NCBI RefSeq assembly: GCF_001687325.1
Contig: NZ_LZRD01000001.1
Span: forward strand, 310,001-374,000
Origin: Streptomyces sp. PTY087I2
GTDB taxonomy: Bacteria > Actinomycetota > Actinomycetes > Streptomycetales > Streptomycetaceae
DNA length: 64,000 nucleotides
Reading direction: 5' to 3'
Made by a program: the position numbers and the translations under genes. The number at the start of each line of letters is the position of its first letter. The first letter of the stretch is position 1. The notes below the pieces were generated by a model, which was not told the origin of the DNA, made no database searches, and worked only from the letters and a program-made list of their open reading frames with translations. Positions 2,739-49,661 of this stretch are shown one piece after another.

Positions 2739-2755
2739 TTGTAGTGTCCCGCTAC

Positions 2756-30999: not shown

Positions 31000-32931
31000 C
31001 TACCGCCGTCCCGTGCTTCGCAGTACGCCGAGGTGCGGGACGGCGATGTCGTGGGGCGCCGGGGGCCTCTCCAAGTCCAAGCCGCTCTCCTCCGCAACTC
31101 CGGCCAAGTCCACCGTGTGCCAGTGGTAGTGGTCCTTCACCTCCCGCACCAGTTCGGTGCCGGAGAAGACCTGCCACGTGGTATCCAGACGCATGAGGTC
31201 CTCGCCCGCCGGCTCACCGGCCATCCACCACTCGTAGCGCAGCCCGCCAAGCTCGGCCTGCCTGAGCCGAGTCGATGGCATCACCACCGGGGTGTGAAAT
31301 CCCATCAACTCGACGACGATCGGCGCACCGGCGGGCAGACGCGCGGCGAGTTCTCTCAGCAGCTCTCGCCGCCGGACGGGGGCGATGTGCCCGAGCACAC
31401 CGCAGGCCACCACAGCACTGACCTTGTCGGGCAGAGCCAGGTCGTTGGCGGCCGCCGCGCGCACCGTGACCCGCCTTGCGAGATCGGGGTCGTCCGCCAC
31501 TCTGCTGGTGAGGATCGCTCGCATTCCGGCCGACGGCTCCGTCGCCAGGATGCGAGCGTCCGGGAAGGCCTCCGCCACCTGCCTGGTGACCAGGCCTGTT
31601 CCGGCCCCGATGTCGAGCAGCGGCCCCGCGCCGACGTCGATGCCCCTGAGCGAGGCGATCACAGCCGGTCCCGTGCGTGCGGTGTGCTCCCGTGCGCCGA
31701 GGTCGAAGAACTCAGCTGGATTGGTGTAGCCCGCGCCTCCCTCCTCCCTCTCGTGCACCGCGTGCGTGGCAGCGACAGCACGATGCTTTCGCACCGTCTT
31801 GGCCTCGACGCCGGTCGCCGCGAATCCCAGGTCAGCCGCGGAGAGTGGCACGGGCGTTGCGGGCCGGATGAGCTCAGGCGGGCCGAGCCTGGCCATCAGG
31901 TCCCGCCAGATCTGGAAGACCGTCAAGTCGCCCTGTGCGGTACGCAAAGGATCGGATCCTGCTGCAATCGCCTCCGCGAATCCGCTCAGCGCGGCATCCA
32001 CAGCAGAGGGCCAGCCCTGGGTGAACAGCCCTTCGAAGGTGAGTTGCTCGTCCTGCGGGGCGGCAAGAACGGTAGATGTCGGCAGCCTCAGAGCTTCGGC
32101 CCCGGGGCCTGCCTCGAAGACCAGACGGTGATCGGCGTCCCGTGGGGAGTGCATCCGCGGATGCCAGAGGACCGGTCCATGAGTGTCTGCCAGGGTGAGG
32201 ACCCCTCCCTCGGTTCCGATCGAGACACGGTGCCAGAAAAGCGCGTGGTTGTCGCGGTCACCTGGATGGATCTGATTCTGGACCCTCAACGTCAACGGGG
32301 CCCCCGCGACGACGCCGTGGAGAAGACGAACCGGCACTCCTCCGTTCGAGGCAGTGCGGACCTCCTCGGAAACCTGGACCGGATCGTCGAAACGCCAGGG
32401 CCTCATCCCTCCGAGTGCCTTGCCCAGGATGTCCACCAGAGGAGCGAGGACATGCACCGGTGCCGTGGCGTCGACGAACAGCACCTTCTGCTTCTTGCGC
32501 AGTTCGCGGGCGGCCTCGATGAAACGGCGGACCGGTTCGACGTGGATGTAGTGAGTGTTGACTCGGAACTGGACGCTCTTCTTTCGCGCCAGCCGCAGGG
32601 ATTCCGTCAGCTCCTCCGGGTGTACTGGATGCTCCTGAAGCACGTGCACGCCGCGGTCCAGGAGAACCTGGCTCAACTCCGTGCCCGTTCCGCCCATCAC
32701 CGCGGCGGGAACCGCGACGCAGGCGGCATCGAGGTCGGCCGGGATCTGGTCGATCCCGACGTGGCAGGGGACTCCAAGCCGTTCGGCGAGGGCTGCCGAG
32801 TGGCCACTGCCCCTGGAGAGGATGCCGACGAGTTCGAAGGCCGGGTGGTTACGAACCGCATCGATATAGAAACGGCCGAAGTTCGTGCCGGCCACCACCG
32901 TGCGCAGCGGTCGGTTCGACGACGGGTTCAC
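31000..32931 (-). CDS. thiazolinyl imide reductase fused to SAM methyltransferase
   Basis: This 643-aa protein has two parts. Residues 1-370 match thiazolinyl imide reductases (PchG, YbtU/Irp3): NADPH-binding VVAGTNFGRFY at 12-22, the LQEHPVHPEE segment near 98, and the THYIHVEP region near 126. Residues about 400-643 are a class I methyltransferase (LLDIGAGTG at 438-446) closely related to the stand-alone enzyme at 28045. Known reductases of this family are single-domain proteins of about 350-370 aa. The GTG start overlaps the upstream stop. It would reduce an enzyme-bound thiazoline to thiazolidine and possibly methylate it, as the last gene of the NRPS operon. Confidence 0.88.
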   Translation of the reverse strand: MNPSSNRPLRTVVAGTNFGRFYIDAVRNHPAFELVGILSRGSGHSAALAERLGVPCHVGIDQIPADLDAACVAVPAAVMGGTGTELSQVLLDRGVHVLQEHPVHPEELTESLRLARKKSVQFRVNTHYIHVEPVRRFIEAARELRKKQKVLFVDATAPVHVLAPLVDILGKALGGMRPWRFDDPVQVSEEVRTASNGGVPVRLLHGVVAGAPLTLRVQNQIHPGDRDNHALFWHRVSIGTEGGVLTLADTHGPVLWHPRMHSPRDADHRLVFEAGPGAEALRLPTSTVLAAPQDEQLTFEGLFTQGWPSAVDAALSGFAEAIAAGSDPLRTAQGDLTVFQIWRDLMARLGPPELIRPATPVPLSAADLGFAATGVEAKTVRKHRAVAATHAVHEREEGGAGYTNPAEFFDLGAREHTARTGPAVIASLRGIDVGAGPLLDIGAGTGLVTRQVAEAFPDARILATEPSAGMRAILTSRVADDPDLARRVTVRAAAANDLALPDKVSAVVACGVLGHIAPVRRRELLRELAARLPAGAPIVVELMGFHTPVVMPSTRLRQAELGGLRYEWWMAGEPAGEDLMRLDTTWQVFSGTELVREVKDHYHWHTVDLAGVAEESGLDLERPPAPHDIAVPHLGVLRSTGRR

Positions 32932-34067
32932 AGCTCACCGTCCTCGAAGCCCATTCCATCCCGCTCCCCGCTGCCTGCAGCGCCCTCATAGACCGAGAAG
33001 TCCGCAGCCTTGGTCAGCACAAGGTCGTCGATGAGATTCCGCGGCTTCAGAACGTCGGCGGCGAAGTGCAGCCCTGGCGGTATCCGGCCATCAAGGAGGG
33101 CGCGGACGGTATGGGCGGCGGTGGCGCCGGTGAGCCTGTAGCTGTCGTCGGTGCTCACCACGCCGGTACGGGACCAGTCTTCACCGGACAGCGTCATCAC
33201 CAGACGGTAGTAGGGCTCTGCACCGGCGAGATCGATCTGCCCCGCTGTGAGGATGCGAGCTATCACAGCCTCCCGCTCCTCGGGAGTATCCACCGGCAGG
33301 GTCGGAAGTGCGGTGAACAGTGAACGTATCTGCTGACCGGGGAAAACGTTGTACCACTCCGCCTCGCGGAGCCCCATCGCTGCCGCGAGGCGTTCGACCT
33401 CGGCCGTCAGCAGGGGCTGAAGTGCTACCTGCCGCGGGTGGAAGGGAATTTCGGCGTTTTCCTCGACGCGCAGGGCCCGCTGCTCACGACGGCCGTGTCG
33501 CCAGGCTGCGAGGGGAAGGCCGAACGGCTCACCGTTGGCACCGCCGACATCGAGGGAGAGCAGGATGTCAGCGGCAACCGTGGGCGTAGCGCGTTCCAGT
33601 CCACCCGCATAGGCGACCAGGCGCTCGGGGGGAGAGGTACCAGCGCCGCCTTCCATGAGCACGTAGGGCACGAGCGCCGACAGTCCGGGCACGGTGCCTG
33701 CGGACAGGACCACGGTGCGTTCAGTGGCGGGCTCGCCTGCGGCCGACAGTGCCTCGCGTGCGGGATCGTCGCCGAGCACATCGACGTAGTCGGCTCCTGC
33801 CCGCAGCGCGGCCCGGGCCACTGAGTCCTTGAGCAGATAGCTGGGGCCGGCGCAGTTGAGGACGACCTGGGTTCCGTCGCAGAACGCGGCGAGGGAGGCC
33901 TCCTCGGTGGCATCGACCGCACGTGTCTCCACCGCTTGCGTCAAGAACTCCGCGGAGAGGGCTTCGGGCTTTCGGGCTCCGAGTCGCAACGGGCCGCATC
34001 CGGACGCGATGAGCGCCTCTACAGCGTGCCGCCCCACGGCGCCGGACGCCCCCAGTACGCCGATCAC
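32928..34067 (-). CDS. saccharopine dehydrogenase-like NAD(P)-binding protein
   Basis: This 379-aa protein begins with a Rossmann motif VIGVLGASGAVGRHAVEAL and carries the family segment VVLNCAGPSYLLKDSVARAALRAGADYVD (about 68-96). It matches saccharopine dehydrogenase NADP-binding (trans-acting reductase) proteins. GTG start and stop overlap both neighbours by 4 bp, so it is made together with NRPS2 and the reductase. Related genes sit in other thiazoline siderophore clusters of coelibactin type. It might act in reduction or cyclisation; the exact step is unknown. Confidence 0.8.
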   Translation of the reverse strand: MIGVLGASGAVGRHAVEALIASGCGPLRLGARKPEALSAEFLTQAVETRAVDATEEASLAAFCDGTQVVLNCAGPSYLLKDSVARAALRAGADYVDVLGDDPAREALSAAGEPATERTVVLSAGTVPGLSALVPYVLMEGGAGTSPPERLVAYAGGLERATPTVAADILLSLDVGGANGEPFGLPLAAWRHGRREQRALRVEENAEIPFHPRQVALQPLLTAEVERLAAAMGLREAEWYNVFPGQQIRSLFTALPTLPVDTPEEREAVIARILTAGQIDLAGAEPYYRLVMTLSGEDWSRTGVVSTDDSYRLTGATAAHTVRALLDGRIPPGLHFAADVLKPRNLIDDLVLTKAADFSVYEGAAGSGERDGMGFEDGEL

Positions 34068-37000
34068 GAGGCCGCCCCTTCGATGATGTCGCTCAGGTGA
34101 CCGAAGACGGTCGGAAGGTGCTCGCCCGTCATACAGGTGAAGTGCTGGCCGGGTATGTCACGGCTGGTGAGCTCACCGAGACAGATCTTCGCCCAGTGAT
34201 CGGTGATGGTGTCGGCACTGCCCGGAAACGGGTAGGCACCGTTGTGCCGCAGGAACGTGATGTCGCCGGCGTACGGCTCGGCCCGGTGCCGACTCAGGGC
34301 GAAGGTGCTCTGCTGGTAAGTCCGCAGTGCTCGGAGCAGCCCCTCCGGCTGGTATGTGCCGGCCAGCTCCGGCGGCAGCGCCTCACACATGCGCGAGACA
34401 CGGCGCATCCGGGGGGATGTCTCCAGCGCGGAGAACGCGGCGGCGATGTCAGCGAATTCCCCGTCGAGTTCGGCAACGGCTCCGTCATGGACCGCTTCGG
34501 GTGACCTCTCCAGCACAGCGCCGACAGTGGCGCCCACGCGATTCTGGTCAGCTGGGAATCCGATCTGCTCCAGGTCCATGCCCATCATGAGGGCGAACGA
34601 GTACTCCGAGAGGAGTTCATCGTCCAGGCGGAACGTGGGGCTGTGACTGCTGATGACTGTGAGAGACCGTACCTCCGCACCCGACTCCGACAGCACCCGA
34701 GCGACTTCGGTCGCGATGACGCCGCCCACGCAGTAGCCGACGATGTCGAAGCGGGTGTGCCCGGCGTCGAGCAGGGCGTGGGCGTATCGCGCGGCGAGCC
34801 GGTCGATCAGTCCGTTCGGGTCGGCGCCGAGGAAGGAGTCGAGCTCGGGGATCTCCAGCCCGACGAGACCGTTACGGCCTGTGGAATGAGCACGGAGTTC
34901 GGTGATCAGCGGACGGTACGGCAGGAGGGTGCCGGTGCCCGCGTGTACCAGTACCGTGACAGGTCCGCCGTCCGACTCCTCGAGCGTCACAATGGGCGAC
35001 GCCTCACCTTGCGCAGCCTGGTCAGGGTCAGCGGAAACGCTGCGCAGGTAGGTGGCCAGGCCGGCGACCGTAGGCTTGCGCAGCAGATGACGCAGGACGA
35101 CCTCCCATTCAAGGTCCCACTCGACGCCTTCCATCCCGTCGAGCCCGTCCCGCAGCCTGCCGACAATGCGAGCCACGAGGAGCGAGTCCCCGCCCAGGGC
35201 GAACAGGTCGTCGTCCCGGCCCACATGGTCATGCTCCAACAGCTCGCCCCAGAGCGCGGCGAGCGCCCGCTCCAGCTCGTCCTGAGGCTGACTCGAAACC
35301 GGTGCCTCGAGCTGCTGGTCGGCCATGCCGGCCCACTTTTCCAGCGTCGCCCTGTCCTGCTTGCCGTTGGCCGTCAGAGGCAGCTTGTCCAGCACTTGCC
35401 ACCGCGTGGGCACCGCGTATTCGGGCAGCAGTTCGGCACTGCGACGGGTCAGTTCCGCCACGGAGACCGGTTCCCGCGCAGGCTTCGGCTGTGCGAAGTA
35501 GAGACGCTGCCCGAAGGCTGTCGCTGCCCGGGAGTCGGTGGGGAACTCCGAGACGACCCTGCCTGCTCGGCTGGTCAGGTGTTCCGTCCACTGTTCCGCG
35601 CTGAGGAACGACTGTTCGCTGTCTGCGCGCACATCGGTGAAAGGCCCGGAGTGTTCGGGCAGGAACTCGGTGGAGATGCGGAGAGCGTGATCGTCATCGT
35701 CGGCATTGCTCAGCAGTACGAGCCAGCCTCCGGGAGAGATCAGTGTCTCCAGTTCCGCGAGTGCCGCGTTCACGTCCGGCAGGTTGTCCAGCACCCCGAC
35801 GCAGACCAGAACGTCGACGGAGTTCGGGAGGAACCCCTGGGCTCGGGCGTTGGCGGACGGGTCGAAACTCCGACAGCGCACGCGTGGATCCTCTGCCCAC
35901 CGCTTCTCGACCGCAGCCCTGTTCTGTGCCGAGGAGTCTGTGGCCACGTACTCGATCTCATGCGTCTCCAGGGCAGGGAGGAGATCGGAGACGATCCCAC
36001 CCCCGCGGAGGCCGACTTCCATGACGCGAAGTGGAGCGTCTCCCCGGTGCTCCCTGGCAATCTCGGTCACACCTGCGATCAGGACCTTCATGAGGCTGCT
36101 GGCAGCCGCGTTGTCCTTATAGGCGGCGGCGAGGGCTCCTGCGGTCTCACCCGAGAACGGCAACTCGCCTGTACCGGCCCGGCCCGTGAGCAGGCGAGGA
36201 AGGTTGCGAGAACAGTCCCGCACCACGCTGAAGAGCTCGGTGCTCCAGGCGGCGGCCCGTTCAAGCTCAGCCGCGTATTCCCATGCACGTTCAACTGCCC
36301 CGGGCTTGGGGGCGGCCAGTCCGTGATATCGGCCGCCGGGGTAGGCGCGCAGGCGGCCCATGGAGGCGAGTCCGCGCAGCCATCGGCGGACGAGCCGGTG
36401 ATGCGGTTCGTCGACAGCCAGTGCCTCGCACACCTCAGCAGCGGTCGGCCTCCTGGCCGCATCGGTGAAGGCTGGTTCCACTGCTTCGGCGATGGAAAGC
36501 AGAGCTGCCTCGCTCAGCGCCGCGCGGAACGCGTCCAGCGCCGGGACGTCCACCGCGGCGACCGCAGTTTGTCCGGCCTTCTCCACGGCGGCGAGGAAAG
36601 ACTCCGGAAGCGGCAGCATCGTGTCCCGGTAGGCCGGTTCGACGAAAGCTGACAGAGCACGGGAGGAACCGGTACTCGCGTCCCCTCGGCCATTGGCGAC
36701 GACCACGGTCGCGGCACCGACCGACGGCTGGGCCTCCAGGACGGACTGGATCTCGCCGAGCTCGATCCGGTAGCCACGAATCTTGACCTGGTGGTCCTCA
36801 CGGCCGAGGAATTCGATGACGCCGTCCGGGTTGTAGCGCCCCAGGTCACCGGTGCGATAGAGCCTCTCTCCGGTGTGAGGCTGGAGCACGAACCTCGCAT
36901 CTGTCCGGTCCTTGTCCCCGAGATATCCCTGGGCAAGTCCGAGGCCGCCGATGTAGAGCTCGCCGGTCACGTGGTCGGGGCAGGGCCGCATCCGCTCGTC

Positions 37001-39541
37001 CAGGACGTGGAAGGTCTGGTTGGTGAGGGGCTTGCCGTAGGGCACGCTCCGCCAGGAGGGGTCGACCTCGACGATGGGGTGGTGAATGGACCAGATCGAT
37101 GCCTCGGTGGCACCGCCCAGGCTGTGGATCTCTGCTGCCGGGGCCCAGCGGCGTGCCGATGCCGGGAGAGCGAGGGGTATCCAGTCGCCGGAGAGCATTG
37201 CCAGTCGGATCGAAGGCAGCGGCGGGTCGTCGGCACGAAGGTAGTCATTGAGCATCTGGAGCTGTCCGGGTACCGAGTTCCAGAGGGTGACGCCCTCCTT
37301 CCGGACAATCTCGGCCCAGCTGGACGGATCCCCACGGCGCGCCGGGTCGGGCAGCACGATCGTCGCTCCCACCGACAGGGGGCCGAAGATGTCGTAGACG
37401 GAGAGGTCGAACCCGAGTTGCGCCAGCGCGAACACACGATCCTCTTGCGTGACGTTGAACCGGCGGTTGACGTCGACGATGGTGTTCAGAGCGGCGAGGT
37501 GGCTGATCATGACGCCCTTGGGGGCCCCTGTGGACCCCGAGGTGTAGATCACGTAAGCCAGCGAGTCGGGCTCGACGTGCACGGCGGTAGGCGCGGGAGC
37601 GTCTGTCTCGGGAAGGGTGTCCACCGCGATGACCGAAAGATGTTCCTCCCACTCCCCCTCCGCGGCCAGCCAGGACTGGGTCAGGACCGTGCGGGCGTCG
37701 GCGTCCGACAGGATCGTGTTACGGCGCCGCAGGGGCTGTGTGGTGTCCAACGGCAGGTAGGCGGCACCGGCTAGGAGCGTACCCAGCACGCCGGCCACTT
37801 GCTCCCACCCCTTGTCCATCGTGATCGCAACCACGTCCCCGGCTCCCACTCCGGAAGCTGTCAGGGCCCGGGCGACACTGGTGGACCTCGCCACGAGTTC
37901 TCGATAAGTGACCGATTGCTCGCCGTCGCGTACGGCCACCCGATCCGGCTCGCGTCGAGCGGCAGCGAGGACCGGGTCCTGGAGCAACGCGGGGGTCAGA
38001 GGAGAGTTGGTGTCGTTGACGCTCCGGCGAACCTCAAGTGTGGCCTCGGGCAGTTCGACCAGGGCGGGTTCGCCCCATGCCGACGGCTCTGCGGCCAGTC
38101 GTGAAAGCAGCGTGGTGTAGGCACTGAAGAGGTGCTCCGCTGTGTCGCCGGCGAGCACGCCTTCTCGTACGTCCCAGCTGATGGCCAGGCCTTCCCCCCG
38201 CTCCATTACCTGACAGTCGAGCCACACCTGGGGCGTCTGGGTCTGTGCATGTCGGACTGTCGCCGCCGGTTGCCGAGTGGTCGCCGAGCCCAGGGTGCTG
38301 GTGAACACGACGGGCATGAGGAGGGTGTCCGACGGGCTGAGCCTGGTCATCTCGGACAGGACCTGGCTGCCCGTGAACAGCGAGTGCGACAGGTCTTCCA
38401 TCAAGTTCGCCCGCAAGGTGGTGGCGCGTTCGGTGAAGCTCTGCTGTGGCCTGAGGTCCACCGCGAGCAGTTCCACCGCGGTGAAGTCCCCCACCAGTCG
38501 ATCGACTTCTTCGTGCAGGGGAAGGCGGGTGAAGGTGGGAACGTTGAGCATGAAGCGCTGGTTGCGACTCCACCGGCCGATGACCTCCGCATAGGCGGTC
38601 AGTGCGGCTGCGGAAGAGGTGACACCGTGGGCTGCCGCGTTCGCCTCGAACGCCTTGCGGTCCTTGGCACTCATCACCGTCTCGAACCGGCGGAACGGGC
38701 CCACCTCGTCAGGGTTGGCCGAGAGGGGGAGGTCCGGGGCCAGTGGCAGGTCCGGCAGGCGCTGCATCCAGTACTCACGGTGCCGAACGTAGTCACCGGT
38801 GAGCGTCTGCTTGCGCCGGGTCAGCACATAGTCGCGGAACCGGGCTTCCAGTGGTGCCAGGGTGGCGCCCTGGTAGATGTCCTCCAACTCGGCCAAAAGC
38901 AGAAGAAGGCTCGCGAAGTCGACGATCAGCTGGTCGATCGACAGATGCAGAATGAGTTCGTCGTCGCAGCGGGTCATACGCAGTTCGAAGAGAGGGGGCT
39001 CGTCGGTCCGCGGGACACGTGCGGCCAGCTCTTCACGAACCCCGGCGACGTGGTCATGCACCTGCCGCTTCCCTGCGCCCCGCAGGTCGGCCACGGGCGT
39101 GGGGTGCTGCGGGATCTCCGGCAGGACCTCCTGGAATCCGTCCGGGTGAACGATGGCGCGCAGCATGTCGTGGCGCTGGACGAGCTGCCGCCACGCGTCG
39201 TCCAGACGATCCGGGTCGGTATCGGCGGGATGGGAGAGCTCGACGTAGACATGGCAGGCAACTCCGCCGTAGCCGTAGGCGCCTCCGCGTCCTACCAGGT
39301 AGGCGGCCTGGATGTCCGTCAGCGGGAACGGCTGGTTCGCGGCAGCGGGGTCCGGCGTCAGCTGCGTCGCCTGGGCCCTCTCCGCCAGATACGACAGAAC
39401 CTCTTCCCGGTTCCCGCGCAACAGTGCGCGGCGCTCCTCGGTCAGCGCGCCCTGCGGTGCACGAAAGCGCAGCTGCCCCTCTTCTTCCCAGAGGCGGATG
39501 CCATCCTTCTCCAGATCCGTAACGATCCGTTGGGCGTTCAT
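34064..39541 (-). CDS. NRPS 2: docking-Cy-A(MT)-PCP-TE
   Basis: This is an 1825-aa terminal NRPS. Residues 1-55 form a TubC-like docking domain. A heterocyclisation domain (about 72-500) carries the DxxxxDxxS motif with D203, D208 and S211. The adenylation domain (about 520-950) has YVIYTSGSTGAPKG at 663-676 and FDLSVYDIFG at 711, typical of cysteine-activating siderophore domains. A methyltransferase-like insertion (about 970-1370; VMEVGLRGGG from 1173) splits the A domain before LPLTANGKQDR. A carrier domain has LGGDSL with Ser 1453. The C-terminal thioesterase has GYCVGG with Cys 1604 in place of the usual serine. It should add and cyclise the last cysteine and release the product. Confidence 0.92.
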   Translation of the reverse strand: MNAQRIVTDLEKDGIRLWEEEGQLRFRAPQGALTEERRALLRGNREEVLSYLAERAQATQLTPDPAAANQPFPLTDIQAAYLVGRGGAYGYGGVACHVYVELSHPADTDPDRLDDAWRQLVQRHDMLRAIVHPDGFQEVLPEIPQHPTPVADLRGAGKRQVHDHVAGVREELAARVPRTDEPPLFELRMTRCDDELILHLSIDQLIVDFASLLLLLAELEDIYQGATLAPLEARFRDYVLTRRKQTLTGDYVRHREYWMQRLPDLPLAPDLPLSANPDEVGPFRRFETVMSAKDRKAFEANAAAHGVTSSAAALTAYAEVIGRWSRNQRFMLNVPTFTRLPLHEEVDRLVGDFTAVELLAVDLRPQQSFTERATTLRANLMEDLSHSLFTGSQVLSEMTRLSPSDTLLMPVVFTSTLGSATTRQPAATVRHAQTQTPQVWLDCQVMERGEGLAISWDVREGVLAGDTAEHLFSAYTTLLSRLAAEPSAWGEPALVELPEATLEVRRSVNDTNSPLTPALLQDPVLAAARREPDRVAVRDGEQSVTYRELVARSTSVARALTASGVGAGDVVAITMDKGWEQVAGVLGTLLAGAAYLPLDTTQPLRRRNTILSDADARTVLTQSWLAAEGEWEEHLSVIAVDTLPETDAPAPTAVHVEPDSLAYVIYTSGSTGAPKGVMISHLAALNTIVDVNRRFNVTQEDRVFALAQLGFDLSVYDIFGPLSVGATIVLPDPARRGDPSSWAEIVRKEGVTLWNSVPGQLQMLNDYLRADDPPLPSIRLAMLSGDWIPLALPASARRWAPAAEIHSLGGATEASIWSIHHPIVEVDPSWRSVPYGKPLTNQTFHVLDERMRPCPDHVTGELYIGGLGLAQGYLGDKDRTDARFVLQPHTGERLYRTGDLGRYNPDGVIEFLGREDHQVKIRGYRIELGEIQSVLEAQPSVGAATVVVANGRGDASTGSSRALSAFVEPAYRDTMLPLPESFLAAVEKAGQTAVAAVDVPALDAFRAALSEAALLSIAEAVEPAFTDAARRPTAAEVCEALAVDEPHHRLVRRWLRGLASMGRLRAYPGGRYHGLAAPKPGAVERAWEYAAELERAAAWSTELFSVVRDCSRNLPRLLTGRAGTGELPFSGETAGALAAAYKDNAAASSLMKVLIAGVTEIAREHRGDAPLRVMEVGLRGGGIVSDLLPALETHEIEYVATDSSAQNRAAVEKRWAEDPRVRCRSFDPSANARAQGFLPNSVDVLVCVGVLDNLPDVNAALAELETLISPGGWLVLLSNADDDDHALRISTEFLPEHSGPFTDVRADSEQSFLSAEQWTEHLTSRAGRVVSEFPTDSRAATAFGQRLYFAQPKPAREPVSVAELTRRSAELLPEYAVPTRWQVLDKLPLTANGKQDRATLEKWAGMADQQLEAPVSSQPQDELERALAALWGELLEHDHVGRDDDLFALGGDSLLVARIVGRLRDGLDGMEGVEWDLEWEVVLRHLLRKPTVAGLATYLRSVSADPDQAAQGEASPIVTLEESDGGPVTVLVHAGTGTLLPYRPLITELRAHSTGRNGLVGLEIPELDSFLGADPNGLIDRLAARYAHALLDAGHTRFDIVGYCVGGVIATEVARVLSESGAEVRSLTVISSHSPTFRLDDELLSEYSFALMMGMDLEQIGFPADQNRVGATVGAVLERSPEAVHDGAVAELDGEFADIAAAFSALETSPRMRRVSRMCEALPPELAGTYQPEGLLRALRTYQQSTFALSRHRAEPYAGDITFLRHNGAYPFPGSADTITDHWAKICLGELTSRDIPGQHFTCMTGEHLPTVFGHLSDIIEGAAS

Positions 39542-42500
39542 ATGACTCCACTTTCTTCAGTCGTGCGAATGCTGTCCGCGATCTCGACCTGTGCGGCAAG
39601 GTCGGCCAGCGTTGAGGCAGCGAGGAACGAGCGAACGGGGACTTCCACACCGAAGGCCTCGTTGACCGCCGCGACCAGTCGAAGCGCTGTCAGGCTGTCT
39701 CCGCCCTCGCCGAAGAAGTTGACGTGCCGGTCCGTTACCTGGGTGCCGAGCAGGTCGGCCCACACGGCGGCGATCTTCTTCTCGACCGGACCGCTCGGTT
39801 CGGTGCCGGCACCAGGCTGGTCGGCGACGTACGCGGCCAGTGCCGGACGGTCGATGCGTCCGTCGGTGTCCAGAGGCAGACGCTCCACAGCCGTGAAACC
39901 GCCCGGCAGAGCGTGAGGAGGCAACAGAGCCGCCACATGGCGCGTGAGATCGGCTGGCAACCCGAAGGGTGCTACCACAACCGCGTGCAGCCTGGGGTCC
40001 TTCTGTTCCCCGACGGTCAGCGCCACGGCCCGGACGATGCCCGGATGCGTCTCCATAGCGGCTTCGAGCTCAGCGAGTTCGACACGTCGCCCGCGGATCT
40101 TCACCTGCCGGTCAGCGGACCCCAGCACTTCCAGAGTGCCGTCGGTCCGGTAGCGAGCCCGGACTCCGGTGCGGTGCCACTGGTCCGCTCCGGCCCCACC
40201 ACTGTTCTCACCGAACGAGTCCGGGCTGTCCTCGCTGCCGACCCACAACTCCCCTGGAACCCACACGGGGCAGTCGTGGCCCAGAACGTGAACGACCCGA
40301 TGGCGCCTTCCTGCCAACGGTTCCCCGTAGGGAAGCGACGAGCGGTCCTCGGGCACCGCGTCGCCCGCCTCGTACGCGGCCGCCCAGATACCCACTGCCG
40401 GCTCATGGCCAAGCGAGATAAAGCGGCATGGATGCGCGGTGGTGGCACGGAGCCGGGCCGGCAGATCGGCGCTCACCCGGTCACCGGAGACCAGTGCCAA
40501 ACGCAGCCCGGTGGGGACCAGGGCCTCACCAGAGGTAAGCGCGTCGGCGGTCAGCAGGTCGTCGAGTACCGCCGAGGGGCCGTTCCAGACCGTGATCCCG
40601 TGTTCGGTCGCCTTCCGCCCCCAGGTCTCGGGAGCTGTCACCCGGATGGTGTCCGACAGGACAAGGGTCCCGCCTGCGCCCAGCAGACCGAACACATCGA
40701 ACACGAAGAGGTCCGACTCCAGTCCGGTCAGGGCGAGCATCCGGTCGTTCTCGGCGAGGCCGGACCGGTTACGGACATCCGCAACCGCACTGCTCGCGGC
40801 ATGGTGACTTATAGCTGTCGCCCGTAGGGGGCCGTCCTCCTGCCCTGTGAGCACGATGACGTAAGCAGGTGAGGCCGGATCGCACACGACAGGGAATCCC
40901 TGCGCCGGGGCCTCGGCGAGTTGGGCCAAGCTCGTCGAGATGATTCCTTCGGCCGCGTCCGGCGCCGGCGTGTCCTCAATGACGAGCCGGGCGTCCACAG
41001 CTCGGAAAAACTGGGTCGTCGGTCCCGTCAGATCATCGGCAGGCACGGCGGCGAAGGCTGCGCCTGTACGCAGAGTGCCGAGCGCGGCGACGACCTGCCC
41101 AGGGCCTCGTGGCAGCGAGATCGCGACCACGTTGCCGGGCCCGACGCCTTGGCGGATGAGCCCCGAAGCCACTCGGGCACTGTTCTCTTCCAGCTCCCCG
41201 TAGGTCATCGAGCCGCCCGGCCACCGCAAGGCCGTCAGGTCAGGTGCTTCCTGCATCTTGCGCAGGACGTCCGCGTGCAGCGTCCCAGCAAGGCAAGGGG
41301 CCTTAGCCGAAGGCCGGGGAGAGCGGTCGAGCGCAGGGAACGACGGCTGCTCAAACGATGGAGGTTCGTGCTCCCAGTCGTGATCGACGAGGTGGTCCAG
41401 GAGGGCGTTGTAGGCATGGAACATGGCGTCGAGCACCCCGGGGCGGAAAAGGTCCTCCACCGCGTCCCAGCTGACCATGATGCCGCCGCGCGACTCAGTC
41501 ACCTGATTGTCGAGCATCACCTGAGGAGTCTGCGAGATGGTGTGGACCTTCGCCGGGAAGGTCTCCGAGAGGTCTTTCACCCCGATGTCGCCCACACCGA
41601 CGGAGCTGCTGAACACCACCGGCATCGCTGCCTCGACCGTGCCGGTGCGCCGGGCCAACTCCTGCATGAGCCAGATCGCGGAAGCCTCCCGGTGATCGAG
41701 GTCCTCCCCCATGACACGTTGGAGACGGTGGGCGGCCTCCAGCCAGGTCTCCCCCGCCTGTGGCGCATGACCGACCAGGGATACCGAAGTGAAGTCGCCC
41801 ACCACCCGGTAGATATGCGGATGCACCGGCAGGCGGTTGAAAAGGGTGAGGTTCACGGTGACGCCGGCCTGGTCGCTCCACGCGCTCAGGACATCCACGT
41901 AGCAGATCAGGAGAACGGCTGAGGGCGTCAGCCCGTGGTGCCGTGCCTTGGCCCGCAGCGTTTCCCAGCGCTCCGCCTCCAGTGGACGACTGCGACGGGT
42001 GAACCAGGGGCGGGACACGGTCGAGGGATCGACGGCCAGGGGGAGAGCGGGGGCGGGCGGGAGTTCGTCCAGCCGACGCAACCAGTGGGCGCGGGCCCGC
42101 TCGACGTCGTCCTTCTCGGGCACGATCTCAAGGACGTAGTCGCGGAAGGAGACATCGATGGGCGGCAGAGGGGTGTTGAGGTCGGAATAGAGCGCGTCCA
42201 GTTCTCCGTGGAGAGCGATGATGGAGGCACCATCGAGAACGATGTAGTCCAGACCAAGAGCAACCCTGGTCCTGGTGCCACCGCCCTGGGGATAGCGCAC
42301 CGCTTGAAGATCGAACAGCGGCCATTGGGTCACGTCCAGCCGCGCGTGGGATGCACTAGTCCGCAGCCGCTCCAGAGCTTCGACCGCCTCGGTCTCGGTT
42401 GCGACGTCGGTCACGCTGATGACGAAGTCGGGGACTTCCGGAAGAATTCGCTGCTGACCCTCGGCATCGAAGACCGCCCGCAGCATTTCATGGCGCTCGA

Positions 42501-45500
42501 TGAGGACACGCCACGCCTGTTGGAGACGGTCGATGTCAACGTCCGCCCCGTCGAACTCGCTGTAGTGATAAGTCCCCACGCCCCCCAGCGGGAGGCGATC
42601 ATCACGTCCGATCAGGAACGCACGTTGTACGTCCGTGGGCGGGAAAGGCTCGTGGCGCCGTTCCGGGTCGCCGGGCCCCAAGGCTTGCGCCCCGGCCTGG
42701 TCCTCCCGGAAGAGCCCTTCGGCGAACTCGGCGAGCCCCGGGTTCGCGAAAAGCCGCGTCGCCTTGGCTCCGCCGACCCCGCGGGCTCGGAGGGCCGCGA
42801 TGAGCCGAGTGGCCAGCAGGGAATCTCCACCGAGGCCGAAGAAGTTGTCCCCCCTCCGGATGTCGGAAACTCCGAGGAGTTCGGACCACACCTGTGCGAG
42901 TACTGACTCAGCCCAGCCCAGGGGTGTCTCTCCGCGCTCTTCGTCCCCTCCGTCGCTTGCGCGGGCCTCAGCGAGAGCCGCGACCTTGGCGCGATCGGGT
43001 TTCCCGTTGGCAGTCAGCGGCAGGGAATCGAGAACCAGTACGTGAGAAGGCACCATGAAGGGCGGCAACAGGCGCGCCAACTCCTCCAGAACGACATCAG
43101 GTGAGAGGGTGGGTGATGCCATGCTGGCGACAGCGAGTACCAGTCGCCGCGGTGCTCCCATGACCTGCGCCACGCAGGCGGACACCCCGTCTATGCCCGA
43201 GGCGGCCGCTTCCACTTCGCCGAGTTCGATCCGGTGACCTCGGAGCTTGACCTGGTGGTCGATGCGGCCGAGGAATTCCAGGACACCGTCGGAGCGGTAG
43301 CGGGCTCGGTCTCCTGTCCGATACCAGCGGCGTCCTTCGTGCTCGACGAACCTTTCCGCGGTGCGCTTCTCGTCACCGCGGTATCCGGCGGCCAGCCCCG
43401 CGCCGCTGACCCATAGCTCGCCGGGTACCCAGTCGGGGGCGTCCCTGCCACGGAAGTCAGCCACCCTCGTCCGCATATTGTCGAGCGGCACCCCCCAGGG
43501 GACGGAGGACCATCGCGGGTCAACCTCATCGACTTCGAAGACGGTCGAGTGCACTGCGGCTTCCGTCATGCCTCCCAGCGCGACGAACCGCGCCTCCGGG
43601 ACCAGACGGCGCAGGCGCCCGGGGAGGTCCAGCCCCACCCAGTCACCGCCCAGGAGTGTCAGTCTCAGTGACTCCCCCATGACCGCCGCAGAGGATTCGG
43701 CGGCAGTCACGATCATCTCCAGTAGTGCGGGAACACAGTTGACCACTGTCACGCCATGTTCGCGGATGAGGCGAACCCAGTGGTCCGCGTCACGCCGGGA
43801 GCCCTCACCGATCAGGACGACAGAACCTCCGGCGGACAGCGGACCGAACAGGTCGTAGACCGACATGTCGAAGTCCAGCCCCGCCAGAGCCAGGCTGCGA
43901 TCGCCGTGGTTCACGTCGAACTTCTTGTTGATCGCCACGATGGTGTTCATCGCCGCGCCGTGGGAGACCTCTACGCCCTTGGGTATACCGGTGGACCCAG
44001 ACGTGAAGATGACATAAGCAATCGATTCGACCGGCTGGTCGAGGAAAGGAGGAGCGGGTCGCAGTCCTTCTGCCTGCTCCACCGACAGGATCTTGGCCGT
44101 GGTTCCCCTCTCCGCGTCCAGATGCGGGGCATCAGTCAGCAACGCGGCAACGGAGGCCACATCGAGGATGCGTGTGACGCGTTCTGCCGGCTGGTCGAGC
44201 CCGATGGGCACGTATGTCGCGCCGGCACCGAGGACACCCAGCACGGCTGCTACCTGCCCCACGCCTCGCGGCAGCGAGATGGCTACTGAGTCTCCAGGAC
44301 GCACCCCTTCAGCGGTGAGGAGCGCTGTCAGCCGACCGGCTCGTTCGGCGAGTTCCCCGTAGGTCACCTGCCGTCCGGACTCGTCGATGATCGCGACGCG
44401 TTCCCCGGAGCGGGACGCCGCCCGGTGGAAACCCTGGTGGAGAAGCTCCTCGACTCCTTCGGCGTCGGTGTCATTGGCCTGTGCGCGGGTACTGCGCTGC
44501 GTCTCGGAGATGTGTACCGGAGCTGGCAGGGACCATGCCCCCTCGTCGTCAAGGAGCGTTTCCAGGAGGCGCCGGTACGCGTCGAACGCGGCCTCCGGGA
44601 CGCCTGGTTCGAACAAGGCATCCCGCACATCCCAGTTGAGCAGCAGTCCCTCGTCGAGTTCCGTGACCTGCGCGTCGAGCCACACCTGCGGGCCTTGCGA
44701 GATGATCCACGTCGGCTCACCGAATGTGTGCCGAACCTCGTGGTCGTAGACTTCGCCGAGTCCGAGCGCACTCGTGTAGACGACTGGGGCGAGGACGGGT
44801 GTCCCGCCGGCCGCACGGGTGAGATCACGCAGCACTTCCACGCCGGAGTAGGCGCCCCGTGCGATGACTGTCCGCAGGCTGGTCTGAATCTCGTTCGCAA
44901 CAGCGGCGAAGGACTTCTCGCCGGTGAGGTCCACATCGAGCAGGACCGAACTGCTGAAGTCGCCGACCATGTCCGCGGCTCCGGGATAGCCCAGATCGCG
45001 GTGGAACAGGGGGAGGTTGAGGAGGAAGCGGGGTTCCGCACTCCATGCCGCGATCACCTCTGCGAAGGCGGCAGCCAGTACTGCGGTAGGAGTCAACCGG
45101 TGTCGCCTTGCCCGTTCCAGGAGGACTTGCTTGCGGCTGGCGTCGAGTCGGTGGAACAGCCGGGTGGTGTGGTGGTAGGCGCTGCCGGCGGCGGCCGGGC
45201 TCAGTGGGTCCTCCACGGTGGGCAGTTGTGGCGGAGCGCTGAGCTCGGGTAGCCGTTGCTGCCACCACTTACGTGCGTCGGCCCGGTCCCCCTCCCGGCT
45301 CGACCGCACAGTCTCCAAGTAGTCGCGGTAGCTGCCGCTGATCTCGGGCAACGGCGCGTTGGGGCGGGCGTAGAGATGCCGCAGATCCCGCAGGAGCACG
45401 CGCATGCTCGCGGCGTCCGCGGCGACCATGTCGAGGTCGATGTGAAGTCGGGTCGCACCGTCGGGGAGCAGGCTGAGAGCAACGTCGAAGACCTGCCCCT

Positions 45501-46161
45501 TCTCCACGTCCATACGGCGGTGGGTGTAGAGGTCCCTGAGCCGGCCGAGTTCCTCGTTGAGTTCTTCTCCGCTCCGGCCGGTCAGATCGTGGATCACGAC
45601 GCTGGGGCCGGACACGGACTCGCGGATCCGTTGGTGCCCGTCATCAAGCACGGTCACACGCAGCATCTCGTGGCGTCGGCGCAGTTGGGCCACGGCCCGA
45701 TCGAGCCGCTCCGGATCCACACCCGCCCCATCGAGTTCGGCATAGAAGTGTGCCCCCACCCCACCGAGGGGCTGGTCGTCCTGACGTCCGATCCAGTAGG
45801 CGTGCTGCATGACGCCCAAAGGGAAGCCTTCGTCCGTGGAGGCCGGCTCCTGCTCCCTGGTCTTCCTGTGCACCTCGTTCTGGGCAGTTGCCGACGTAGC
45901 TGTTCCCGCGTCGCGCAGGATCTCGATCCACCGGCGCAGGGTGGAGGCCTCGGCAAGCTCTTCGAAGGTGACCTTCAGCCCTCGCCGGCGCCAATCGGCC
46001 GTGAGTCGGATCAGGCCCAACGAGTCCAGCCCCAGCTCGAAGAGGTCCACATCGAGCGCTATGTCCTCGGCGGGCACTTCGAGAACGGCGCAGACCGCCG
46101 CCACGACCTCAGACTCGCCCGGCGTCCCGGCTTCCGGTTGTGAAATCTCTGCCACGAACAT
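39538..46161 (-). CDS. NRPS 1: ArCP-Cy-A-PCP-Cy-A(degenerate)-PCP
   Basis: This is a 2207-aa NRPS. An aryl carrier domain (Ser 47 in LGLDSLGL) is followed by Cy1 (D244, D249, S252), A1 (YVIFTSGSTGIPKG 716-729, FDMSVYDLFG 764, YRTGD 947, catalytic NGK with Lys 1054), PCP1 (Ser 1114), Cy2 (D1305, D1310, S1313), a second A-like domain (1630-2110) and PCP2 (Ser 2156). The second A domain has VIVLTGQEDGPLRA instead of the ATP-binding loop, RTGV for RTGD, and DGR for NGK, so it looks inactive. Salicylate is presumably loaded on the ArCP by the ligase at 46261. It is the first gene of a four-gene operon with 4-bp overlaps and has a strong RBS (GAGGAGGG) and a Zur box upstream. Confidence 0.93.
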   Translation of the reverse strand: MFVAEISQPEAGTPGESEVVAAVCAVLEVPAEDIALDVDLFELGLDSLGLIRLTADWRRRGLKVTFEELAEASTLRRWIEILRDAGTATSATAQNEVHRKTREQEPASTDEGFPLGVMQHAYWIGRQDDQPLGGVGAHFYAELDGAGVDPERLDRAVAQLRRRHEMLRVTVLDDGHQRIRESVSGPSVVIHDLTGRSGEELNEELGRLRDLYTHRRMDVEKGQVFDVALSLLPDGATRLHIDLDMVAADAASMRVLLRDLRHLYARPNAPLPEISGSYRDYLETVRSSREGDRADARKWWQQRLPELSAPPQLPTVEDPLSPAAAGSAYHHTTRLFHRLDASRKQVLLERARRHRLTPTAVLAAAFAEVIAAWSAEPRFLLNLPLFHRDLGYPGAADMVGDFSSSVLLDVDLTGEKSFAAVANEIQTSLRTVIARGAYSGVEVLRDLTRAAGGTPVLAPVVYTSALGLGEVYDHEVRHTFGEPTWIISQGPQVWLDAQVTELDEGLLLNWDVRDALFEPGVPEAAFDAYRRLLETLLDDEGAWSLPAPVHISETQRSTRAQANDTDAEGVEELLHQGFHRAASRSGERVAIIDESGRQVTYGELAERAGRLTALLTAEGVRPGDSVAISLPRGVGQVAAVLGVLGAGATYVPIGLDQPAERVTRILDVASVAALLTDAPHLDAERGTTAKILSVEQAEGLRPAPPFLDQPVESIAYVIFTSGSTGIPKGVEVSHGAAMNTIVAINKKFDVNHGDRSLALAGLDFDMSVYDLFGPLSAGGSVVLIGEGSRRDADHWVRLIREHGVTVVNCVPALLEMIVTAAESSAAVMGESLRLTLLGGDWVGLDLPGRLRRLVPEARFVALGGMTEAAVHSTVFEVDEVDPRWSSVPWGVPLDNMRTRVADFRGRDAPDWVPGELWVSGAGLAAGYRGDEKRTAERFVEHEGRRWYRTGDRARYRSDGVLEFLGRIDHQVKLRGHRIELGEVEAAASGIDGVSACVAQVMGAPRRLVLAVASMASPTLSPDVVLEELARLLPPFMVPSHVLVLDSLPLTANGKPDRAKVAALAEARASDGGDEERGETPLGWAESVLAQVWSELLGVSDIRRGDNFFGLGGDSLLATRLIAALRARGVGGAKATRLFANPGLAEFAEGLFREDQAGAQALGPGDPERRHEPFPPTDVQRAFLIGRDDRLPLGGVGTYHYSEFDGADVDIDRLQQAWRVLIERHEMLRAVFDAEGQQRILPEVPDFVISVTDVATETEAVEALERLRTSASHARLDVTQWPLFDLQAVRYPQGGGTRTRVALGLDYIVLDGASIIALHGELDALYSDLNTPLPPIDVSFRDYVLEIVPEKDDVERARAHWLRRLDELPPAPALPLAVDPSTVSRPWFTRRSRPLEAERWETLRAKARHHGLTPSAVLLICYVDVLSAWSDQAGVTVNLTLFNRLPVHPHIYRVVGDFTSVSLVGHAPQAGETWLEAAHRLQRVMGEDLDHREASAIWLMQELARRTGTVEAAMPVVFSSSVGVGDIGVKDLSETFPAKVHTISQTPQVMLDNQVTESRGGIMVSWDAVEDLFRPGVLDAMFHAYNALLDHLVDHDWEHEPPSFEQPSFPALDRSPRPSAKAPCLAGTLHADVLRKMQEAPDLTALRWPGGSMTYGELEENSARVASGLIRQGVGPGNVVAISLPRGPGQVVAALGTLRTGAAFAAVPADDLTGPTTQFFRAVDARLVIEDTPAPDAAEGIISTSLAQLAEAPAQGFPVVCDPASPAYVIVLTGQEDGPLRATAISHHAASSAVADVRNRSGLAENDRMLALTGLESDLFVFDVFGLLGAGGTLVLSDTIRVTAPETWGRKATEHGITVWNGPSAVLDDLLTADALTSGEALVPTGLRLALVSGDRVSADLPARLRATTAHPCRFISLGHEPAVGIWAAAYEAGDAVPEDRSSLPYGEPLAGRRHRVVHVLGHDCPVWVPGELWVGSEDSPDSFGENSGGAGADQWHRTGVRARYRTDGTLEVLGSADRQVKIRGRRVELAELEAAMETHPGIVRAVALTVGEQKDPRLHAVVVAPFGLPADLTRHVAALLPPHALPGGFTAVERLPLDTDGRIDRPALAAYVADQPGAGTEPSGPVEKKIAAVWADLLGTQVTDRHVNFFGEGGDSLTALRLVAAVNEAFGVEVPVRSFLAASTLADLAAQVEIADSIRTTEESGVI

Positions 46162-46184: not shown

Positions 46185-46199
46185 TGATAATCATATTCA
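46185..46199. promoter_or_regulatory. Zur box between NRPS and salicylate ligase genes
   Basis: TGATAATCATATTCA sits in a longer palindrome GAATGATAATCATATTC. It lies 24 bp from the NRPS1 start and 62 bp from the ligase start, so one operator should control both arms of the biosynthetic cluster. Confidence 0.85.
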
Positions 46200-48243: not shown

Positions 48244-49584
48244 TCAGGAAGCGGAATGCACCGGTTCAACGGCAGGCACCAGGAAGCGGCCTACGCTGCG
48301 GAGCTTCTCTCGTGTCTCCTCCAGCTCCCGCTCCGGATCGGACTGTGCCACGACTCCGGCACCCGCCCGCAGCCACGTACGGCCGGCGCGCCGATACACG
48401 CTGCGGAGCACAAGCGCCGCGTCCAGAGTCCCGTCGCCGTCGACCATGATCACGGCGCCGCTGTACAGCCCCCGACTGGTCTTCTCAGAGAGGCGAATCC
48501 GTTCACACGCCTCCTTCTTGGGGATGCCGGACGCGGTGATCGCGGGGAAGAGCGTGGCGAACGCATCCCAACTGGTGGCTCCTTCCCGCAGGCTGCCTAC
48601 CAGATATGAGGCGAGATGCTGAACGCTGCCGCGTTCACGGACTGACATGAATTCGGCCACTCGGACCGTGCCGTCCTCGCAGACCTCGGCAAGCTCCTCG
48701 GCAGCCAGCCGCACCGAGATGGCATGCTCGAAGACCTCTTTCGCATCCCGCAGCAACTCCTTTCGTGCTGCGTCATCCACGGCGGGTTCGCCCACGAGGG
48801 CACGGGTACCCGCCAGCGGTTGCGCATTGACCTCGCCCTCGGCGGTCACCCGGGCTACGATCTCCGGGCTGAACCCTGCCGCCTCCCATTCCCCGAGACG
48901 GAGGAGGAATGACCGGGCCGGATCGTTGTTCCTCCGCCCCGTCACGTAGGTGGCCGGCAGATCGATCTCCCCGGGCACAGGCACCTCTCTGGAGAGAATG
49001 ACCTTGTCCAGGGCCCCCTGACGGATTTCTCGTACGGCCTCGGCCACCGCTTGGCGATACGCATCGGCGCCGTGGAAATCTACATCGGCCTCAATCCGGC
49101 CTTCAGAGATAGCAGGTCGGCTCTCCGCCCCCGCCAGTCGAAGCACCATGGCGTCCAGAGCCTTCTCGTCCTGGGCTCGCAGGACCGCGACTCCGTCTCC
49201 GAACCGTATCTCCGCCCTGGGCAGGAAAAGCCGCGCCAGCGGCCCAGGCGACTTACCGGCGTCGCTACAGGAAGTGGCCAGCTCGAACGTTGCCCACCCG
49301 TAAGCCCGCCAGTCGGCTCCGCCCATCTCAGCCAGCGCCTGTCCGGCAGCGGCCAGCGGTCGTAGGTCCGTATCCAGAGGGCTGCGCTCGCCTCCGCATT
49401 CGAGCCAGACCCCCGTGGCATCGACTTCCACGGCTGCGGCCTCGCCCTCCGCCCAGCAGACCTCCTCTCGGTTCTCGTACAGCACGTAGGCGTCCGTCGA
49501 CTCCGCGGCGAGCGCGGCCGCCACCGCGATGACGTCACGATCAAACGGAACTCGCCGTTCTACGCATGCCAGAGAAGGTTTCAC
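48244..49584 (-). CDS. salicylate synthase (MbtI/Irp9 type)
   Basis: This chorismate-using enzyme of about 446 aa belongs to the anthranilate synthase component I superfamily. The C-terminal half carries SGIPKKEACERIRLSEKTSRGLYSG and LRAGAGVVAQSDPERELEETREKL, which place it with the Irp9/MbtI/YbtS salicylate synthases rather than with isochorismate synthases. Such enzymes make salicylate directly, so no separate pyruvate lyase is needed, and none is present. GTG 49584 fits the family length; a TTG at 49665 overlapping the upstream stop is the alternative. It is the last gene of the minus-strand transport operon. Confidence 0.85.
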   Translation of the reverse strand: MKPSLACVERRVPFDRDVIAVAAALAAESTDAYVLYENREEVCWAEGEAAAVEVDATGVWLECGGERSPLDTDLRPLAAAGQALAEMGGADWRAYGWATFELATSCSDAGKSPGPLARLFLPRAEIRFGDGVAVLRAQDEKALDAMVLRLAGAESRPAISEGRIEADVDFHGADAYRQAVAEAVREIRQGALDKVILSREVPVPGEIDLPATYVTGRRNNDPARSFLLRLGEWEAAGFSPEIVARVTAEGEVNAQPLAGTRALVGEPAVDDAARKELLRDAKEVFEHAISVRLAAEELAEVCEDGTVRVAEFMSVRERGSVQHLASYLVGSLREGATSWDAFATLFPAITASGIPKKEACERIRLSEKTSRGLYSGAVIMVDGDGTLDAALVLRSVYRRAGRTWLRAGAGVVAQSDPERELEETREKLRSVGRFLVPAVEPVHSAS

Positions 49585-49661
49585 TGCAGTTGTCTCGCTT
49601 TCGGATATCCGTCGGCGGCTGCCGCCTGGAGCGTCCTCGCAGCCTTGGCCGACCCTGCGGA

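What the first reader, a model, noticed from the sequence alone, without database searches (positions are those of the whole stretch)
39832..41274. Second adenylation domain of NRPS1 has lost its catalytic motifs
The ATP-binding loop (YVIFTSGSTG in A1) reads YVIVLTGQEDGPLRA, RTGD is RTGV, and NGK is DGR. The Cy2 and PCP2 domains around it keep all their key residues. The module therefore cannot self-load; A1, or the A domain of NRPS2, must charge PCP2 in trans, as the single A domain of yersiniabactin HMWP2 does. This looks like an intermediate stage between one-A and two-A assembly lines.
Basis: partly seen in the sequence, partly recalled or inferred. Interest (0 to 1): 0.7.

Follow-up and report, generated by a model that had tools for sequence, protein, structure and literature searches.

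The report
Catalytically dead domain in zincophore synthetase
In a Streptomyces enzyme that probably builds a metal-scavenging molecule, the domain that should load one amino acid has lost the residues it needs, the same loss is shared by six related genomes, and another loading domain (most likely the one on the partner protein) must do the job, which is an unusual variant of a known trick.

Summary
The second adenylation (A) domain of NRPS1 (39832-41274, minus strand, residues 1630-2110) has lost the ATP loop, A5 Thr-Glu, A7 Asp and A10 Lys; Cy2 and PCP2 keep their motifs. It is not a sequencing error or frameshift: six other genomes of the genus have orthologous NRPS1s with the same sites lost and different residues in their place. 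The seven dead A2s form one clade, most simply one old loss. They evolve faster than A1 and Cy2 but still under purifying selection, so the domain is kept as a pseudo-enzyme. Sixteen intact-A2 relatives examined have a cysteine-type A2. The cluster is coelibactin-like, with Zur-box-like sites in a zinc-uptake neighbourhood. Loading of PCP2 with Cys in trans by NRPS2 is favoured (about 0.5; A1 about 0.25); no loading was shown. Dead A domains served by another A domain are known or proposed (bleomycin, albicidin, Sib1), so this is a new variant of a known kind.

The parts
39538..46161 (-). NRPS1, 2207 aa: ArCP-Cy1-A1-PCP1-Cy2-pseudoA2-PCP2
   Evidence: ORF; Pfam AMP-binding x2, Condensation x2, PP-binding x3
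42982..44439 (-). A1, intact A domain, code DMYNLGLVHK (not the Cys code)
   Evidence: motifs; code, same in 7 of 7 members
41302..42624 (-). Cy2, heterocyclization motif kept (LDYIVLDGASI); most conserved domain of the clade (mean 77.8% pairwise)
39832..41274 (-). A2, catalytically degenerate adenylation domain (pseudo-A); pocket residues still spell the Cys code DLFNLSLIW
40819..40863 (-). A2: degenerate A3 (ATP) loop YVIVLTGQEDGPLRA
40162..40164 (-). A2: A7 Asp position, Val2000 (RTGV); V,A,E,T,T,S,S in the seven members
39856..39858 (-). A2: A10 Lys position, Arg2102 (DGR); no Lys in any of seven
39577..39789 (-). PCP2, GGDSL attachment motif kept
34064..39541 (-). NRPS2, 1825 aa: TubC_N docking-Cy-A-MT-PCP-TE; TE nucleophile motif GYCVG
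36683..37972 (-). A domain (core) of NRPS2: intact motifs, Cys code DLYNMSLIW; proposed trans loader of PCP2
32928..34067 (-). saccharopine-dehydrogenase-like oxidoreductase (same Pfam domain as SrbE of sorangibactin)
31000..32931 (-). thiazolinyl imine reductase (Irp3-like) fused to a methyltransferase
29772..30998 (+). cytochrome P450
46261..47934 (+). stand-alone aryl-acid AMP ligase (salicylate presumed)
   Evidence: the syntenic genes are annotated (2,3-dihydroxybenzoyl)adenylate synthase
48244..49665 (-). salicylate synthase
   Evidence: TIGR03494 450.7 bits, cut-off 325.15
49662..54593 (-). ABC importer genes, Opp/Nik type (ATPase, two permeases, binding protein); below the curated cut-offs of single NCBIfam models
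46185..46199 (+). Zur-box-like site in the divergent promoter region between NRPS1 and the AMP ligase
   Evidence: 2 mismatches to a recalled consensus

Best explanation
A2 of NRPS1 is a pseudo-adenylation domain. It descends from a cysteine-activating A domain like that of coelibactin-type synthetases, and lost its ATP-handling residues most simply once, before the seven lineages split. It is kept as a folded Cy-A structural platform. PCP2 stays in use and is aminoacylated from outside its module, most likely with L-cysteine in trans by the A domain of the downstream partner NRPS2, the only intact Cys-code A domain found in the cluster. Cy2 then forms the second ring as in coelibactin/sorangibactin-type metallophores. 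Shown: the motif loss, the seven-genome conservation, the relaxed but purifying selection, the codes, the cluster type. Inferred: inactivity of the protein, trans loading, the identity of the loader and of the amino acid, the structural role.
For: Catalytic motifs lost in 7 of 7 while the Cy2 and PCP2 motifs are intact. The seven A2s form one clade (100/100) whose branching agrees with that of A1 and of the NRPS2 A except for the unsettled place of the window itself. dN/dS of A2 is 0.39-0.65 in six degenerate pairs, every bootstrap interval below 1; A1 is 0.20-0.30 and Cy2 0.19-0.23 in the same pairs, and A2 is 0.19-0.26 in three intact pairs. The window's A2 still reads DLFNLSLIW, at eight positions the PchE Cys code (table in PMC3672683). 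The 11 coelibactin-type intact A2s read DLYNLSM[IV]WK. The A1 code is non-Cys in 7 of 7; the NRPS2 A is Cys-type with TSGSTG, RTGD and NGK present. The dehydrogenase and imine reductase-MT genes, and the P450 where the fetched loci reach it, are shared with the coelibactin-type intact-A2 clusters, so module 2 probably still installs Cys. A Cys A domain that loads carriers in cis and in trans is documented for HMWP2 (PMC9547227 passage).
Against: No biochemical data. The substrate of A1 is inferred from its code and from the equivalent position in related clusters (Ser in sorangibactin, Thr predicted in mupirochelin), not measured. PCP2 is not more like the NRPS2 PCP in the degenerate clade than in the intact clade, so there is no sign that PCP2 adapted to the NRPS2 A. 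In one pair (L043-L055) PCP2 has dN/dS 0.90, though over 71 codons. In the precedents that I know (Sib1, albicidin, and bleomycin from recall) the loader lies upstream or stands alone, not downstream. The AF2 model of A2 is only of middling confidence (pLDDT 67.2). An A domain encoded elsewhere in the genome could also serve.
Confidence: 0.5

Rival explanations
1. A1 loads both PCP1 and PCP2 in cis, as the single A domain of HMWP2 does, giving two rings from the same amino acid.
For: Same polypeptide; precedents: HMWP2 and fungal Sib1, where the first A domain is proposed to replace a degenerate second one (PMC2644324). A1 has Y239 and N278 as in the Cys code.
Against: The A1 code (G301, H331) is not a Cys code, and A1 is sister to coelibactin-type A1. 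Relatives use Ser (sorangibactin) or predicted Thr (mupirochelin) at the equivalent position. The code shows no shift towards Cys peculiar to this clade: Y239/N278 also occur in 4 of 5 of the more distant intact clusters (the fifth has F239/N278). Keeping the reductase-MT gene argues for an unchanged Cys at module 2.
Confidence: 0.25
2. A stand-alone or foreign A domain (another cluster in this NRPS-rich genome) loads PCP2, as proposed for albicidin.
For: Albicidin, ramoplanin and enduracidin (PMC8949500 section 14). The genome has many A domains (88 matches of NRPS1).
Against: Inside the window range of contig C1 the search matched only NRPS1 and NRPS2, and the Pfam/NCBIfam scans of selected ORFs added only the aryl-AMP ligase. 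This is not exhaustive: one search did not list the ligase itself, and not every ORF was scanned.
Confidence: 0.1
3. Module 2 is skipped: PCP2 is never loaded and the chain passes from PCP1 to NRPS2.
For: A2 is dead; module skipping is known in NRPSs (recalled). PCP2 dN/dS is 0.90 in one of five degenerate pairs.
Against: Cy2 is the most conserved domain of the clade (77.8% mean identity, dN/dS about 0.2); PCP2 is as conserved as PCP1 (68.5 and 69.9%) and keeps GGDS in 7 of 7.
Confidence: 0.07
4. A2 keeps some non-canonical activity (cysteine binding, or a partial reaction).
For: In the window the specificity pocket is still an exact Cys code and purifying selection persists in the clade.
Against: The other six members have altered pockets (HPFN.., DRFD.., PPFN.., AGLN.., VRFN.. 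twice), so no shared pocket function is conserved.
Confidence: 0.05

Closest known systems
Coelibactin / sorangibactin NRPS clusters (SCO7681-7683 in PMC5932044; Srb, PMC10127202)
   Same: ArCP-Cy-A-PCP-Cy-A-PCP plus Cy-A-MT-PCP-TE, Cys-nucleophile TE, saccharopine-DH-like protein, imine reductase, P450; salicylate synthase as in sorangibactin
   Different: A2 is intact and Cys-type in coelibactin-type clusters (11 of 11 examined) and annotated A(cys) in PMC5932044; here it is dead
Yersiniabactin HMWP2/HMWP1
   Same: One functional A domain in the first synthetase for two aminoacyl carriers (PMC9547227 passage)
   Different: HMWP2 has a single A domain and it is Cys-specific; here a pseudo-A2 is retained, A1 is not Cys-coded, and NRPS2 has its own Cys A
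Bleomycin BlmIII/BlmIV (Du 2003; only the title seen, as a reference; content recalled)
   Same: Cys loading in cis and in trans (title); an A domain without function (recalled)
   Different: Loader is the upstream BlmIV A (recalled); here the favoured loader is on the downstream protein
Albicidin, ramoplanin, enduracidin inactive A domains
   Same: Inactive A in the assembly line complemented in trans, proposed for albicidin (PMC8949500 section 14)
   Different: Complemented by a dedicated stand-alone A-T protein
S. pombe Sib1 / fungal ferrichrome synthetases
   Same: Degenerate second A domain lacking core motifs, retained in the protein (PMC2644324 passages)
   Different: Fungal, A-T-C modules, upstream A proposed as loader in cis

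Membership tests
Coelibactin-type NRPS cluster | NRPS1 ArCP-Cy-A-PCP-Cy-A-PCP with NRPS2 Cy-A-MT-PCP-TE | tested here: met
   Pfam domains
Coelibactin-type NRPS cluster | TE with Cys nucleophile | tested here: met
   GYCVG in 6 of 7 members (the seventh, L078, is cut by the locus end); GYCLG in 8 of 11 coelibactin-type intact ones (three cut); not found in the 5 more distant ones
Coelibactin-type NRPS cluster | imine reductase, saccharopine-DH-like protein, P450, aryl-AMP ligase | tested here: met
   present in the window; relatives compared as far as the loci reach
Coelibactin-type NRPS cluster | functional Cys-specific A2 | tested here: not met
   motifs lost
Coelibactin-type NRPS cluster | Zur (zinc) control | tested here: inconclusive
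   Zur-box-like sites at 46185 and 54578; 9 in window against 0.15 expected; consensus recalled
Yersiniabactin (HMWP2) single-A assembly line | single functional A in the first synthetase | tested here: met
   only A1 has intact motifs in NRPS1
Yersiniabactin (HMWP2) single-A assembly line | that A is Cys-specific and loads all aminoacyl carriers | tested here: not met
   A1 code DMYNLGLVHK is not the Cys code; loading itself not testable
Module with inactive A complemented by another A | A domain with core motifs lost | tested here: met
Module with inactive A complemented by another A | carrier charged by another A | not testable with these tools
   needs a loading assay

The most novel reading that the evidence does not exclude
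A stable pseudo-A domain under selection as a Cy-A structural platform, with division of labour reversed between the two proteins: the downstream synthetase's cysteine A domain charges a carrier of the upstream synthetase. The seven genomes form a decay series, from an intact Cys pocket to an erased pocket, that records how a two-A line gives up one A without losing the domain.
Probability: 0.4. Interest if true: 0.6.

Novelty: new variant of a known kind. Interest (0 to 1): 0.45.

Why it matters
NRPS products are predicted from A domains in order. A conserved dead A domain breaks this rule and would mislead such predictions (either a Cys call at A2 from the remnant code, or a missing call). 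The seven-genome series with intact sister clusters makes it directly testable why a dead A domain is kept and which neighbour charges its carrier, which is useful for engineering NRPSs with fewer A domains.

Tried and rejected
Sequencing error or paired frameshift: rejected (six further genomes). Repeated independent loss: not favoured (A2 monophyletic, branching congruent with A1 and NRPS2 A), though the long branches (window A2 1.04, L056 A2 1.3) warrant caution. PCP2 likeness to PCP1 or to the NRPS2 PCP as a clue to its loader: inconclusive, the coelibactin-type intact clusters show the same pattern. Cy2 acceptor-type positions: only two columns separate Cy1 from Cy2/Cy3 in the intact clusters; the degenerate Cy2s have the Cys type in 14 of 14 cells, too few to weigh. 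A-less relatives: none seen; the six closest NRPS1s all have A2, but only part of the genus was sampled, and of the single-module ORFs of 1168-1257 aa only two were fetched (L079, L080). Structure model: A-domain fold found (Foldseek top SyAstC, then PchE), but at pLDDT 67.2 from seven sequences it adds little. Iron-box search: 0 matches, but 0.00 expected, so uninformative.

Sampling and rows left out. In one search, 60 of 295 genomes matched A2 at E<=1e-60; stretches of 20 of these 60 were fetched, chosen mainly for two-A ORFs of about 2200-2340 aa, so the other 40 were not examined. Left out of the comparison of 7 degenerate and 16 intact NRPS1s: L009-L012, L057-L062, L067, L079, L080 (other architectures or incomplete). 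Of these, L012, L057-L062 and L067 show intact A3-A8 motifs; for L079 and L080 only codes were printed; L009-L011 were not in those tables. G693 and G705 were not fetched.

Full report
What is there. The window lies in a genome whose genus is Streptomyces by inference: the best named full-length hits of NRPS1 are Streptomyces plasmids, and a same-genus genome, G147, holds a contig of the same length and matches as a named Streptomyces record. NRPS1 (39538-46161, minus strand, 2207 aa) reads ArCP-Cy1-A1-PCP1-Cy2-A2-PCP2. NRPS2 (34064-39541) follows with a TubC_N docking domain, then Cy-A-MT-PCP-TE. Next come a saccharopine-dehydrogenase-like gene and an Irp3-like thiazolinyl imine reductase fused to a methyltransferase. 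A P450, a salicylate synthase and an Opp/Nik-type ABC importer lie near. A divergent aryl-AMP ligase starts at 46261. Annotated clusters on plasmids of S. clavifer, Streptomyces sp. SAT1 and NBC_01320 have the same order of ligase, NRPS1, NRPS2, dehydrogenase and reductase. The NRPS2 TE carries a Cys nucleophile motif GYCVG, a trait that the sorangibactin paper (PMC10127202; abstract, sections 3, 5, 7 and passages read) gives for both of the clusters it compares. I therefore call the cluster coelibactin-like.

The observation. The finding's stretch is residues 1630-2110, and the motifs it quotes are correct. A5 (GGxTE to GHEPA) and the A4 Phe are lost as well. In PchE the A4 Phe (F741) gates the pantetheine tunnel and the A10 Lys contacts Cys-AMP (PMC8807600 passages; F741 aligns with Ser1816 of NRPS1), so both half-reactions should be affected. 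Cy2 and PCP2 keep their motifs.

It is shared. Searches found six further genomes of the genus whose A1 is 66-70% identical to the window's. In one search, 15 of 392 genomes had an A1 hit at E<=1e-165: 7 (own included) are of the degenerate kind, 6 were examined and have an intact A2, and 2 (G693, G705) were not fetched. All seven degenerate NRPS1s (window, L043, L078, L055, L056, L092, L093) have lost A3, A5, A7 Asp and A10 Lys, with different residues in their place. The comparison set of 16 intact NRPS1s is 11 coelibactin-type ones and 5 of a more distant type. Of 191 columns invariant in the 16 intact A2s, 36 are lost in all seven and 48 kept in all seven. Controls: A1, 14 lost and 138 kept of 178; Cy2, 16 lost and 111 kept of 147.

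Selection and history. Mean pairwise identity in the degenerate clade is 46.5% for the A2 core against 72.4% for A1, 77.8% for Cy2, 69.9% for PCP1 and 68.5% for PCP2; in the 11 coelibactin-type intact ones the A2 core is 85.0% and A1 88.0%. Pairwise dN/dS (Nei-Gojobori, codon bootstrap, 6 of 21 possible pairs) is 0.39-0.65 for A2 with every interval below 1. A1 is 0.20-0.30, and the A1 and A2 intervals do not overlap in 5 of 6 pairs (they do for L092-L093, the closest). Three intact pairs give 0.19-0.26 for A2. Against a clean contrast: the C-terminal subdomain of intact A2 reaches 0.56 and 0.90 in two very close intact pairs, and PCP2 reaches 0.90 in the degenerate pair L043-L055, all over few codons. 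dS is near or above 1 for the pairs that include the window, so those values are rough. A maximum-likelihood tree of 68 A domains puts the seven A2s in one clade (100/100) and A1 of this clade next to coelibactin-type A1 (99/94). The branching inside the clade agrees between A1, A2 and the NRPS2 A except for the place of the window. The long branches of the A2s are a caveat. The simplest reading is one old loss, vertical inheritance, and continued selection on the fold.

Specificity codes. A1 is DMYNLGLVHK in 7 of 7. Coelibactin-type A1 is DLWQLGLVHK in 11 of 11 and coelibactin-type A2 is DLYNLSM[IV]WK in 11 of 11. The window's dead A2 reads DLFNLSLIW plus Arg for Lys, which at the eight tabulated positions is the PchE Cys code (table in PMC3672683, passage seen). 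The other six A2s have lost parts of the pocket (HPFNLSLGW, DRFDVSLLW, PPFNLHLLD, AGLNASLLW, and VRFNMSLLW twice). So the window holds the least decayed pocket of the seven. The NRPS2 A is DLYNMSLIW, Cys-type, with TSGSTG, RTGD and NGK present. The substrate of A1 is not known: the equivalent A domain in sorangibactin takes Ser by feeding although predicted as Cys, and that of mupirochelin is predicted Thr (PMC10080011 passages). The resemblance of N..G..H to the canonical Thr code is recalled.

Mechanism. Cy2 and PCP2 are conserved and therefore presumably used; A2 should not charge PCP2 by known chemistry; so another A domain does. The dehydrogenase and imine reductase-MT genes, and the P450 where the fetched loci reach it, are shared with coelibactin-type intact-A2 clusters; in the more distant type the reductase match is only about 360 residues, without the MT part. 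So module 2 probably still installs Cys. The only intact Cys-code A found in the cluster is on NRPS2, so I favour loading in trans by NRPS2 (0.5), with A1 loading second (0.25). HMWP2 shows that one Cys A can serve carriers in cis and in trans (PMC9547227 passage). Why the dead domain stays: in PchE and FmoA3 the Cy-Acore didomain is a stable unit and makes the whole dimer interface (PMC8807600 passages); a pseudo-A2 may keep that platform. This is inference. Tests that did not help: PCP similarity, Cy acceptor positions, and the structure model (pLDDT 67.2, pTM 0.64; A-domain fold in Foldseek).

Relation to known systems. Dead A domains served by others are known or proposed: albicidin and others (PMC8949500 section 14), the degenerate A2 of Sib1 (PMC2644324 passages), and bleomycin BlmIII/BlmIV (title as cited reference, content recalled). 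HMWP2 has a single A domain (PMC3672683 passage). I found no paper describing a degenerate A2 in coelibactin-type synthetases in the searches (listings, of an open-licence library only; subscription journals are mostly missing). I rate it a new variant of a known kind. The claim of an 'intermediate between one-A and two-A lines' holds only as a decay series: the state is shared by seven genomes, and no A-less form was seen in the sample.

Setting. Nine sites like the Streptomyces Zur box (consensus recalled) lie in the window against 0.15 expected (none of 100 shuffles reached nine), one between NRPS1 and the AMP ligase and one at the start of the binding-protein gene. The recalled iron box gave none, but none was expected. 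With ZnuA-, ABC-3- and CobW-type genes nearby, the product is more likely a zincophore than an iron siderophore, in line with the zinc control of the coelibactin cluster cited in PMC3707159 (passages).

Noticed in passing
window 2724, 11365, 20492, 27032, 46185, 54578, 56221, 57912, 58389: Nine Zur-box-like sites (up to 3 mismatches to a recalled consensus) against 0.15 expected by shuffling: the whole window looks like a zinc-regulated island.
   Followed up: partly
window 2714-3628, 4836-5789, 8185-9342: Zinc uptake genes: ABC-3 permease, ZnuA-type binding protein, CobW family protein, on the low-coordinate side of the metallophore cluster.
   Followed up: partly
window 59987-62653: pPIWI_RE protein (PF13032, PF13111), to my recollection the mark of a candidate anti-phage defence module, beside the zinc island.
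   Followed up: no
window 15890-17608: Pyridine-nucleotide oxidoreductase and methyltransferase domains in one ORF.
   Followed up: no
window 21470-25125: Two neighbouring ABC transporter ORFs with fused membrane and ATPase domains, same strand, ends overlapping.
   Followed up: no
   Followed up: no
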